Shown in pieces: positions 14,014 to 19,904 of a DNA stretch of 64,000 nt; within the stretch, counting starts at the first letter, position 1; each line of letters starts with the position of its first letter. Source of the stretch: an uncultured Prochlorococcus sp. (GTDB taxonomy: Bacteria; Cyanobacteriota; Cyanobacteriia; PCC-6307; Cyanobiaceae); contig CACIYC010000005.1 of NCBI GenBank assembly GCA_902590775.1, forward strand, positions 1 through 64,000. The letters are read 5' to 3'. The notes under the pieces are model-generated. The model was not told the DNA's origin. It did not search any database and was given only the letters and a program-made list of their open reading frames with translations. A program made the translations under genes and the position numbers.

Positions 14014-14954
14014 AATTACTAGAGAGCACTTTTAAATAACATGATTTATAATTTTATCTTGTAGAAGAGCTTGATAATAGATTCGTTTAGGAATTTCTTT
14101 TACTATCTTCATATCAAAGAAAATGGATTGGCTTGCTAACTTTTGTGGAGATTTCAGATATTAATACAATTTTCATACTTTGATTGGTAAAACTTAAGTG
14201 ACTTATGCTCATAATCTTTCACCTATTTAGTTGACCATATAAGAAGAATTAATTAAGGCAAGTAAATTTCATTCACTTTGTTTAAAATTTTAGAATTCCT
14301 TTGATGAAAAGTTTGATTCATCAGCTAATTACTTCAATGAATTTTGTCTTTCAATCAAACAGGACAAATCTATAAGTAGTGCAGTGGATTAAAAGCTCTT
14401 ATTGATTAGGAGAAGAAATGTTCTTGAGAAAAGAAATGTTTACTCTTTAATTATGGCTATTTTAATTCATCCTATTTCTCTTAGTTTCCTTGGTGTAGAG
14501 GAGGTGAAGATTCATTATGATGTATTTTCTTTCTGATTAACCGTGCTTCTTTAAAAAGGCTCATAGCCTCTTTCCTTCCTACTGCAGCCTCAGCTTTGAG
14601 CATTATTTTTGCATACTCTTTATTCATTTGTTTTTTTGTCATTGATTTTCTGGAGTTGGGATGTGGGAGAAGAGGGGGATGGTGCTTGTAGTAAATTTGA
14701 CTTTCCAATATCCTTTCACTTTAGAGTTATACCATCTAGTTTAATCTCATCTGAGATATATCTACGCTAGCACAGCAGCTGCTTGAGATTAAGCATAAAT
14801 CCTCATCACAAAATAGTAGTACAGATATACTATTAAGTTATAAATGAGGGCTTAAGGATCTTAAAGTCTATGAGAAGAATTATTTTCGTTGGTGTCCAAT
14901 GTTTTTCAAGAAATCTCTTGCTCAATGAAAGCGGAGGAAGTTATTGAATGATTC

Positions 14955-15248
14955 TTGGCTTTCTTATCAAAAAAAGTTATTCATCAAGTGCAGGAAAGAT
15001 TGATGATGCCTGAAGGGTGGTTGATTGAGCCCGCAAAGAAATGGTTGCTTCTTTTTCGTAAAGATCCAATTAGTTTGCAGAGGTCACCAAAAATTTATAT
15101 GGATAAATGGTATGTAACTAATATGGGTACTCCTGCTGCTTTTAGAGATAGAAGAAAAGTTGATTTCGAACCAGCATTGGAAACGTGGAATGAGTTAATG
15201 GGTAATGGTTGGAAGAGAGTTGACTTCATTCATGATTCCATTGTCTAG
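14955..15248 (+). CDS. DUF1651-like protein
   Basis: PEGWLIEP...RRKVDFEPALETWNELMGNGWKRVD resembles the DUF1651 pattern as recalled. Confidence 0.55.
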   Translation: MAFLSKKVIHQVQERLMMPEGWLIEPAKKWLLLFRKDPISLQRSPKIYMDKWYVTNMGTPAAFRDRRKVDFEPALETWNELMGNGWKRVDFIHDSIV

Positions 15249-15250
15249 AT

Positions 15251-15444
15251 GCTTCTGAGATGAGATAGGTTAGGTCTTCTATTTGTAACTAAACCCCTAT
15301 TTATGGTAGAGGTTATAATGTGCAGTTAACTACCTTTATGTCTCAACTAACAATCAAAGTATCTGCGAAAGCAAAAGCCAAGAAAGATTAGTTGTGTTCG
15401 AAGAACTACTGCCAAAGTATCGACAGTACTTTTACTCCCTTAAG
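15251..15444 (+). repeat. 194-bp inverted repeat, arm 1
   Basis: Reverse complement matches 17230-17423 with 2 mismatches by direct comparison. Confidence 0.97.
15338..15391 (+). CDS. 17-aa peptide MSQLTIKVSAKAKAKKD inside repeat arm 1
   Basis: TATAAT at 15314-15319; identical second copy in arm 2. Confidence 0.3.
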   Translation: MSQLTIKVSAKAKAKKD

Positions 15445-15506
15445 ACTGTGTTTATAGGCAGATAGAGAGCTATACACCTCTCTTTGATCCTTTTTAAAGT
15501 ACAACA

Positions 15507-15653
15507 ATGAAGAAGCTAATCAAATGTCATAAATTAATGATTGAAAAAGTGCAGAGTGAAATGGGGATTTCTCATTACAGAATGTACTGGATATCTTTTC
15601 TAGAAGGTGCGTTGGCTATGTGGGTTCTGATGAAAATAGCAACTTCTTTATGA
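15507..15653 (+). CDS. Small TM protein (48 aa)
   Basis: MKKLIKCHKLMIEKVQSEMGISHYRMYWISFLEGALAMWVLMKIATSL. Confidence 0.45.
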   Translation: MKKLIKCHKLMIEKVQSEMGISHYRMYWISFLEGALAMWVLMKIATSL

Positions 15654-15866
15654 GATATTTTCGCTCAATACAATGTAATAAGTAGATAAAAATTGCCAAC
15701 TTACTCTACAAATCGAGCTAATTGCCTAGAGTAGTTTTTCTAATGCAGTAATCAACTTTGACGATTCTTAAATTCGTTAATTAATTTTAGAAGATATAGA
15801 TTGGTATCATCTTTTATTGCTTGATTTAACAAGTTAGACCATTTATTTTGCTAAAAGGCAGGTAAT

Positions 15867-16241
15867 TTAATTGCCTGAATCATTAGCCATTTCAGAAGCA
15901 TCTAATAATTCAGCCAACTTTCTAAATTGATCCTTGTTTTGAATCAATGAATTCAGACTAGAGAATCCATTAGTTTTTAGTTGTTTAACAAAGTTTAGGT
16001 TAAGCCCAAGAGTCGCATTTCTCTTTCTCTGATTGGATGAGGACTTTTCTTGATATAAGAATTGCAACCTTTCATAGAGGAAATTATATTCATTACATTC
16101 TTTTTCATTAGAAAATTTCGTTCCGTCGATAGATTCAAAACTTACTTTTTGGGTGCTTGAACTAGAGAAAATAAGACGTAAAAGTAAAACTGTGGTTACT
16201 AAACCAAATAGAATTACTAATCCCAAATACAAATTGTTCAT
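15867..16241 (-). CDS. Hypothetical protein with N-terminal TM
   Basis: ORF track. Confidence 0.6.
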   Translation of the reverse strand: MNNLYLGLVILFGLVTTVLLLRLIFSSSSTQKVSFESIDGTKFSNEKECNEYNFLYERLQFLYQEKSSSNQRKRNATLGLNLNFVKQLKTNGFSSLNSLIQNKDQFRKLAELLDASEMANDSGN

Positions 16242-16480
16242 TTAGCTTGATCGTAATCTTCATATGCTAGAGAAAAGTAGAAGCATAGAAGTTAGATATT
16301 GCGTAAAGTATCGCATTACCACAACTTCTGACAAGCCGTTGAAATTTATGTGAAAAGATATTATAAGCAGCAATTGATTTCTGGATATCAAGGTATTCCT
16401 TAAGCTATAGAAGGTAATGATTAGATTCCAAGGTCTGCTTTCCAAAAATGGATGGAATCAGATAACTCAGCACACTAACT

Positions 16481-16499
16481 TAGGTGTTAAGACGGACTT
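16481..16499 (+). promoter_or_regulatory. Conserved leader motif TAGGTGTTAAGACGGACTT (copy 2 of 3)
   Basis: Matches copies at 6688 and 19691. Confidence 0.6.
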
Positions 16500-16546
16500 G
16501 AATGATATTTTTTAAAAGCTATAGTTGCGTAATTGCTTTTTGTTAA

Positions 16547-16708
16547 ATGTCCCAGAGAGAATTTGATGCGATCATTGATGATTGTTTTTTAGATGGAGCA
16601 GCACAGTGTTTAAAAAGAAAGTATAAAGACAAAAATGACTTAAGATTAATAAAAGTTTTTTCTAGGTTAATTGAAAGAAATAAAGGAAGCTTAAGACAAG
16701 CTGTTTAA
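16547..16708 (+). CDS. 'FDxxIDxxFLxGA' micro-protein family, member B (53 aa)
   Basis: MSQREFDAIIDDCFLDGAAQCLKRKYKDKNDLRLIKVFSRLIERNKGSLRQAV; inside the inverted-repeat-flanked segment. Confidence 0.6.
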   Translation: MSQREFDAIIDDCFLDGAAQCLKRKYKDKNDLRLIKVFSRLIERNKGSLRQAV

Positions 16709-16925
16709 TTAGTTGCGCAAAACAGAAGGGTTTGGATCGAAGGTCAAAAGCTAGTCTCTTTTATAAGGTTTTAAAATGAATATTAACCTATAAAATTTTA
16801 TTTTTTAAGAATTGCCTCCTTATTTTCTTATGTGAAAGAATATCACCAGTTACCTTTTGTTTTGAGCAGTTCCAAAAACAGGGATAATTTTCTGATAATA
16901 AGTACTTATAGCTACTAAAGGTTGC

Positions 16926-17123
16926 CTAAGTTTTGGTCGCTTGATGCATTATAAACGTAAGCAAAAAAATCATTATTATTAGCGGAAGTATGGTGTTTAA
17001 AAAACTAATAAGAACGAAAAGAATTATTGTGCAACCACAATAAAGCCCCCATTTAGGGAAATAGCTAAAAGTCTTTTTTCTATTAGAACTCTGAGGTGAA
17101 ATTATTTCTGGATTAATTGCCAT
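16926..17123 (-). CDS. Small membrane protein
   Basis: ORF track; hydrophobic C-terminal half. Confidence 0.5.
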   Translation of the reverse strand: MAINPEIISPQSSNRKKTFSYFPKWGLYCGCTIILFVLISFLNTILPLIIMIFLLTFIMHQATKT

Positions 17124-17229
17124 TTAATTGATTACCTTAGACTTCCCTATATCCTAAATAGATTTCCAAATGTGGCAATAAAGGGAAGGTTGAATTAAAC
17201 CCTTCCTTTCTTCAGTCCAACAGTATTAA

Positions 17230-17423
17230 CTTAAGCGAGTATAAGTACTGTCGATACTTTGGCAGTAGTTCTTCGAACACAACTAATCTTTCTTGGCTTT
17301 TGCTTTCGCAGATACTTTGATTGTTAGTTGAGACATAAAGGTAGTTAACTGCACATTATAACCTCTACCATAAATAGGGGTTTAGTTACAAATAGAAGAC
17401 CTAACCTATCTCATCTCAGAAGC
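17230..17423 (-). repeat. 194-bp inverted repeat, arm 2
   Basis: Reverse complement of 15251-15444, 2 mismatches near one end. Confidence 0.97.
17283..17336 (-). CDS. 17-aa peptide MSQLTIKVSAKAKAKKD inside repeat arm 2
   Basis: Identical copy of 15338-15391 on the opposite strand. Confidence 0.3.
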   Translation of the reverse strand: MSQLTIKVSAKAKAKKD

Positions 17424-17963
17424 TAGAGTTGAATAACGTATTGATTGGGAATGTTGATCAAGTAATCTTCCGAATGAGCTTTGTAATGACTTCAGATATA
17501 TTGGTATACATGGAGGTTGCTCTAACAACTTCATTGCCTTTTGCTCATTTCTTTTTAGATCATTGCAGCTAGCAAATCTTTAACTGTTGTGTTAAGGGGA
17601 CTTTTGATGTAATTTATACTTATAATGCATTAGTAGATAAGATGCTATCTGGTTTTGAAATATTTTGAGTAAAACAAGTCATCCTTGCACCTATTAATGG
17701 TAGACACTTCGATACAGATGTCTCCAAAAGTACATCCGCATCTGTAAAAATGATTATCATGATGAAAAATCAGTCAAGACATTTCAGTAGAGACTAAATC
17801 GTCTACCAACAACCATTGGATAGTGATTTTTATTTGGTTAGTGAAGTATATTTTTTGTGATACTCATAATACATTTTTGATTTTTAAGGAGAATCGCGAG
17901 TACTTAATTTTAGAGATGGCGGATTTTAAGAATTGCAGAATAAAAGTTTGTTGTTGGTTTCTA

Positions 17964-19690: not shown

Positions 19691-19709
19691 TAGGTGTTAA
19701 GACGGATTT
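19691..19709 (+). promoter_or_regulatory. Conserved leader motif TAGGTGTTAAGACGGATTT (copy 3 of 3)
   Basis: Matches copies at 6688 and 16481. Confidence 0.6.
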
Positions 19710-19757
19710 TACTATCTCTTTTTATAGTGCATATTTCATTTAATTGCTTCTACTTCA

Positions 19758-19904
19758 ATGACTTCAAATGCGTTTGATGACTTCATTGACGATTGTTTCT
19801 TAAGTGGGGACGAGATATGTCGCATTAGCAAGTATGAAACTAGAATTAATTTTTTCGCCTCCAAGTTGATTGATGAAACGTTACAGGAAGAAAAAGCTGC
19901 ATAA
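19758..19904 (+). CDS. 'FDxxIDxxFLxGA' micro-protein family, member C (48 aa)
   Basis: MTSNAFDDFIDDCFLSGDEICRISKYETRINFFASKLIDETLQEEKAA. Confidence 0.6.
   Translation: MTSNAFDDFIDDCFLSGDEICRISKYETRINFFASKLIDETLQEEKAA

What the first reader, a model, noticed from the sequence alone, without database searches (positions are those of the whole stretch)
15251..17423. Near-perfect 194-bp inverted repeat flanking a 1.8-kb segment
15251-15444 equals the reverse complement of 17230-17423 except for 2 substitutions near one end. Each arm carries TATAAT and an identical 17-aa ORF MSQLTIKVSAKAKAKKD. Such identity in a streamlined, AT-rich genome suggests recent duplication, gene conversion or a non-autonomous mobile unit, and the intervening segment (which includes a leader-motif micro-gene) could invert by homologous recombination.
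Basis: partly seen in the sequence, partly recalled or inferred. Interest (0 to 1): 0.85.

Follow-up and report, generated by a model that had tools for sequence, protein, structure and literature searches.

The report
Two matching relics of one gene
The mirror-image repeat in this Prochlorococcus genome is two broken copies of an old duplicated gene, kept almost identical most likely because DNA from one was copied over the other; it is neither a jumping element nor a dedicated switch, although intact pairs of this gene in a relative lie at or near the ends of a half-megabase flipped piece of chromosome.

Summary
The repeat is real: 15251-15444 and 17230-17423 are 194 bp, 99% complementary (2 mismatches), and the only two copies in the held (67% complete) genome. 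Its interpretation changes. Each arm is the remnant of one gene unit, here called c0: upstream region, start and end of a ~165-aa protein (conserved ~100-aa domain plus Lys/Ala-rich tail) found across Prochlorococcus and its family. About 400 bp are missing from the middle and the 3' relic is out of frame. The 17-aa ORF MSQLTIKVSAKA-KAKKD is therefore a deletion product.

The arms stand at two old, separately conserved loci: the left arm follows an intact DUF1651 gene, the right arm follows a decayed c3 gene at the native spacing. Four other genomes hold c0 pairs at 99.5-99.8% identity with the same 5' edge (-81 to -85); other within-genome pairs are at most ~88% alike. For one such pair, congeners have both sites occupied by diverged copies. 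Non-allelic gene conversion explains this best.

No site-specific invertase was found, so a dedicated switch is unlikely. Inversion by homologous recombination stays possible: in one single-contig genome a near-identical inverted c0 pair sits at or near both ends of a ~0.5-Mb inversion. Ordinary mechanism, modest interest.

The parts
15251..15444 (+). Left arm: relic of the c0 gene unit, from 87 bases before the start codon to the presumed ancestral stop
17230..17423 (-). Right arm: the same relic on the other strand, 2 mismatches to the left arm
15338..15391 (+). 17-aa ORF of the left arm (12 codons of c0, then an out-of-frame 3' relic)
17283..17336 (-). Identical 17-aa ORF of the right arm
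15374..15444 (+). Decayed 3' end of c0 in the left arm (KPRKARRAKR region, out of frame)
   Evidence: mean score 23.4 against 16.5 +/- 1.2 for shuffles, maximum 21.6
14955..15248 (+). DUF1651 gene directly upstream of the left arm; DUF1651 also precedes c0 in G002, G004, G006, G028 and G074
   Evidence: (PF07864, E 6e-24)
17424..17611 (-). Decayed c3 gene (start lost, stops inside) directly upstream of the right arm, with the spacing of intact c3-c0 pairs
   Evidence: score 69, shuffles 30 +/- 4, maximum 46
14481..14708 (-). c1 gene, which precedes many c0 units in relatives
15465..15496 (+). Hairpin followed by T-run downstream of the left arm, possible terminator; not shared with the right arm
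   Evidence: read from the sequence and fold (z -1.8); not picked up by the terminator scan
17180..17209 (-). Hairpin downstream of the right arm, possible terminator; not shared with the left arm
   Evidence: z -1.4; not picked up by the terminator scan
15507..15653 (+). 48-aa ORF inside the repeat, conserved in other Prochlorococcus genomes
15867..16241 (-). 124-aa ORF inside the repeat, relatives in G010, G011, G028
16547..16708 (+). 53-aa ORF inside the repeat (the island micro-gene), relatives in G009 and G012
16926..17123 (-). 65-aa ORF inside the repeat, conserved in other genomes

Best explanation
The inverted repeat is a pair of decayed paralogs of one small Prochlorococcus gene unit (c0: upstream region, promoter region and a ~165-aa basic protein) standing convergently at two old island loci, one behind DUF1651 and one behind c3. 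One copy lost about 400 bp of coding sequence, leaving 12 codons plus an out-of-frame 3' end, which now reads as a 17-aa ORF. Non-allelic gene conversion by the cell's ordinary homologous recombination then copied the broken unit over the other one. The tract ends where homology ends: just after the upstream gene's stop and near the ancestral c0 stop. Shown: the arms, their derivation from the c0 unit, the two contexts, and parallel pairs in other genomes. Inferred: that conversion was the event, its direction, and the machinery.
For: Arm bases 1-133 match the 5' part of intact c0 genes; the rest matches the c0 3' end better than all 300 shuffles on the mean score. Left context DUF1651, right context decayed c3 at native spacing. 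Near-identical c0 pairs in G005, G028, G074 and G004 (99.5-99.8%) begin at -81 to -85 while other within-genome pairs are at most ~88% alike. In G074, G028 and G005 the two copies lie in different, separately conserved contexts. Congeners of G074 carry diverged c0 at the c3 site (G112) and the DUF1651 site (G137).
Against: No genome of the same species with diverged copies at these two sites was seen, so the event in this genome is inferred from parallels. G112 shows no DUF1651-c0 pair. The c3 relic is old and recognised only against shuffles. Identity of two short arms alone cannot separate conversion from a recent copy.
Confidence: 0.78

Rival explanations
1. Recent inverted duplication: the left unit was copied into a place 1.8 kb away where no c0 stood before.
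For: Near identity of the arms and only two copies in the genome.
Against: The right arm lies behind a c3 relic at the spacing of intact c3-c0 pairs; the arms end at gene-unit edges also seen in four other genomes; the mismatches are followed by further matching bases, as in an older pair.
Confidence: 0.13
2. A dedicated invertible switch: the arms are recombination sites that flip the 1.8 kb and change expression.
For: Inverted, nearly identical arms. In G004 a near-identical inverted c0 pair lies at or near both ends of a ~0.5-Mb inversion.
Against: No resolvase or invertase match in the held genome and tyrosine recombinases only on other contigs. In relatives the repeated unit is an ordinary gene. 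No flipped form was seen. About a third of the genome is missing.
Confidence: 0.04
3. Non-autonomous mobile element with the arms as terminal repeats or as the unit that moves.
For: c0 units with similar edges occur at several sites in related genomes.
Against: No target duplication seen at the outer ends, no transposase among the ORFs examined next to the repeat, no third copy; the arms are gene remnants with conserved neighbours.
Confidence: 0.02
4. Assembly or amplification chimera.
For: The genome is a fragmented partial assembly and its named relatives are mostly single-cell genomes; inverted chimeras are common in whole-genome amplification of single cells (own knowledge).
Against: Both ends of the repeat are bounded and fall at gene-unit edges, the copies differ near one end, each copy stands in a context conserved in relatives, and a single-contig genome (G074) has the same inverted convergent arrangement.
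Confidence: 0.03

Closest known systems
Concerted evolution of bacterial paralogs by non-allelic gene conversion (as for rRNA operons or tuf genes; own knowledge)
   Same: Two paralogs in one genome are nearly identical over exactly the shared unit, while their flanks are unrelated and equivalent pairs elsewhere are diverged.
   Different: Here the homogenised allele is a broken gene, and the pairs are homogenised only in some genomes.
Chromosome inversions between inverted repeats by homologous recombination (own knowledge: rRNA operons, IS copies)
   Same: In G004 an inverted near-identical c0 pair lies at or near both ends of a ~0.5-Mb inversion relative to G002 and G012.
   Different: The repeat is a ~580-bp protein-gene unit; causation is not shown. 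In the window the interval is 1.8 kb and no inversion is seen.
Island genes of marine picocyanobacteria with DUF1651 (PMC5490813)
   Same: The left arm follows a DUF1651 gene, a family reported there as phage-infection response genes in genomic islands.
   Different: The paper does not describe c0 or the repeat; no response was tested here.

Membership tests
Paralog pair homogenised by gene conversion | Near identity limited to the homologous unit, unrelated flanks | tested here: met
   Arms 99% over 194 nt, flanks unrelated
Paralog pair homogenised by gene conversion | Both sites held a copy before the event | tested here: inconclusive
   Right arm sits behind a c3 relic at native spacing; direct sister comparison possible only for G074
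Paralog pair homogenised by gene conversion | Equivalent pairs diverged in other genomes | tested here: met
   Most within-genome pairs 70-88% alike; four others above 99%
c0 protein family | Intact conserved ~100-aa domain | tested here: not met
   Only 12 codons and an out-of-frame 3' relic remain; the arms derive from the family but are not working members
Ribbon-helix-helix DNA-binding fold (for intact c0) | Strand-helix-helix core | tested here: inconclusive
   Prediction has helices 10-27 and 33-43 but mean pLDDT 53.7 and no strand; no Pfam match for c0 and no significant PDB match
Phase-variable invertible segment | Serine invertase or nearby recombinase | tested here: not met
   No PF00239 match; PF00589 matches only on contigs C11 and C15; assembly 67% complete
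Phase-variable invertible segment | Both orientations found | not testable with these tools
   No reads or second genome of this species
Non-autonomous transposable element | Several copies in the genome | tested here: not met
   Two copies only
Non-autonomous transposable element | Target-site duplication at the outer ends | tested here: not met
   None visible at 15251 and 17423

The most novel reading that the evidence does not exclude
The c0 unit is a recurrent recombination substrate of Prochlorococcus genomic islands: its copies repeatedly become identical and, when inverted, flip the chromosome between them (perhaps 1.8 kb here, ~0.5 Mb in G004), giving streamlined genomes a source of rearrangement that needs neither transposons nor invertases.
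Probability: 0.25. Interest if true: 0.55.

Novelty: new member of a known kind. Interest (0 to 1): 0.33.

Why it matters
It turns an apparent mobile unit or switch into a readable case of gene conversion spreading a broken allele, and it points to an uncharacterised, highly conserved picocyanobacterial protein whose gene copies recur near island rearrangements. If c0 pairs really drive inversions, they offer a testable source of gene-order change in Prochlorococcus.

Tried and rejected
Rfam scan of the region: nothing near a gathering score; one isrC match at 21.8 bits against a cut-off of 39. Exact-pattern scans of viral and genome collections with pieces of the ORF DNA: none. c0 in phage records: none; IMG/VR: one short contig. 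PDB profile search and AlphaFold prediction of the conserved domain: no usable result, so no fold search was run. Literature searches found no paper on this gene; only DUF1651 was documented. Promoter and terminator pattern scans were close to shuffles.

Full report
Observation. The inverted repeat is present as described: 15251-15444 and 17230-17423, 194 nt, 99% complementary, 1785 nt apart. The two mismatches are near the inner end. The held genome (1.235 Mb, 48 contigs, about 67% complete) has no third copy. Both arms hold the 17-aa ORF.

What the arms are. Searching 60 related genomes with one arm found matches in 11 (the window's own genome included), limited outside it to arm bases 1-133. 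Aligned, this part is the region upstream of, and the first codons of, a full-length gene of about 150-185 codons: MSQLTIKVSAKAEAMIAQLQKEIFNRRRKKITAQGVVESLVESGAKSQSDKRYASSWKNLIKDIEKAAKQ and so on, followed by a Lys/Ala-rich tail with a KPRKARRAKR-like end. I call it c0. It has no Pfam family. It matched in 115 of 201 genomes of the family, mostly one copy in genomes above 2 Mb and one to five in smaller ones; the best 80 named hits are Prochlorococcus single-cell or related genomes, one labelled Synechococcaceae.

The 17-aa ORF. After codon 12 the arm no longer matches c0 in frame. The remaining ~70 bases resemble the 3' end of c0, where relatives read AAGCCAAGAAAGGCTAGACGTGC (KPRKARRA) in another frame. 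Mean alignment scores to the c0 ends were 23.4 (left) and 24.3 (right) against 16.5 +/- 1.2 and 16.7 +/- 1.3 for 300 shuffles, whose maxima were 21.6 and 20.7. Judged by the best single score the result is weaker: the left arm's 35 is below the top shuffle (39), the right arm's 41 above it (37). From the start codon to the presumed ancestral stop the arm has about 107 bases where relatives have 450-590, so about 400 bases were lost, with a frameshift. None of 400 family genomes showed the same 3' relic beyond weak short matches.

Two old loci. In relatives c0 follows either c3 (often c1-c6-c3-c0, with a convergent c5 behind) or a DUF1651 gene; some genomes have both upstream. The left arm follows an intact DUF1651 gene (PF07864, E 6e-24). 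Upstream of the right arm the DNA reads as a decayed c3 with stops and a lost start: score 69 against 30 +/- 4, maximum 46. Its end is about 92 bases before the c0 start; c3 in many intact c3-c0 pairs ends 89-98 bases before it. So each arm stands where a c0 copy belongs.

Parallel cases. Four other genomes have c0 pairs at 99.5-99.8% identity: G074 (inverted, convergent, 3 kb, single contig), G028 (direct, 3.8 kb), G005 (direct, 11 kb) and G004 (inverted, ~0.5 Mb). All four tracts start at -81 to -85; three end within about 11 bases of the stop, and G028 runs on to +657. Other within-genome pairs are about 70-88% alike. In G074, G028 and G005 one copy is in a c3 or c6-c3 context and the other in a DUF1651 context, though in G005 the DUF1651 is only a weak remnant. 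Congeners of G074 have the c3 site (G112) and the DUF1651 site (G137) occupied by diverged c0 copies. This fits conversion between standing paralogs better than new insertion. The tract edge needs no special site: upstream of it the two loci are unrelated.

Could it flip? No resolvase-type invertase was found and tyrosine recombinases lie on other contigs, so a dedicated switch is unlikely. Homologous recombination could still invert the 1.8 kb. In G004 the order tRNA-Gly - X ... PRTase - C-locus seen in G002 and G012 is changed to tRNA-Gly - c0 - PRTase ... X - c0 - C-locus downstream, an inversion of about 0.5 Mb. One c0 copy is at a junction and the other within about 2 kb of the second. 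PRTase lies 0.1 kb from c0 in G004 but 3.4-5 kb away in relatives, so the event was not a simple exchange; this is association, not proof. c5 lying behind DUF1651-type c0 in G004 and G006, but behind c3-type c0 in most others, also suggests crossovers at c0.

Function. Intact c0 may bind DNA (basic tail, a helix pattern loosely like ribbon-helix-helix), but the structure prediction was poor (mean pLDDT 53.7), so this is a guess. The arms themselves are most likely relics without a working protein product; transcription from them cannot be excluded. DUF1651 genes elsewhere respond to phage infection and lie in islands (PMC5490813), which says something of the neighbourhood, not of the repeat.

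Naming. Genomes are given by handle. Identification as Prochlorococcus rests on the record titles of loci from the same relatives; the window's own record is not named.

Noticed in passing
L078 and L079 (G004:C1:95000-102000 and 592000-599000): A ~0.5-Mb inversion relative to G002 and G012, with near-identical inverted c0 copies at or near both junctions.
   Followed up: partly
window 15507-15653 (+) and 16926-17123 (-): The 48-aa and 65-aa genes are neighbours on one strand in G012:C4, G120 and G143, but lie at opposite ends of the repeat's interior on opposite strands here, so the interior has been rearranged.
   Followed up: partly
window 16481-16708 and 19691-19904 (+): Two members of a micro-gene family (MSQREFDAIIDDCFLDGAA..., MTSNAFDDFIDDCFLSGD...) whose upstream DNA and first codons also resemble copies in G009 and G012.
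   Followed up: no
L019 (G000:C38, match at 251-550, minus): The only intact c0-like gene found in this genome stands beside a dnaB-like helicase gene and carries DUF4116 repeats instead of the Lys/Ala-rich tail.
   Followed up: partly
L021, L031, L084 and others, about -85 to -65 before the c0 start: A palindrome such as ACCTCTGTCATGACAGAGGT lies at the 5' edge of several intact c0 units, a possible operator; it is degenerate in the window arms.
   Followed up: no
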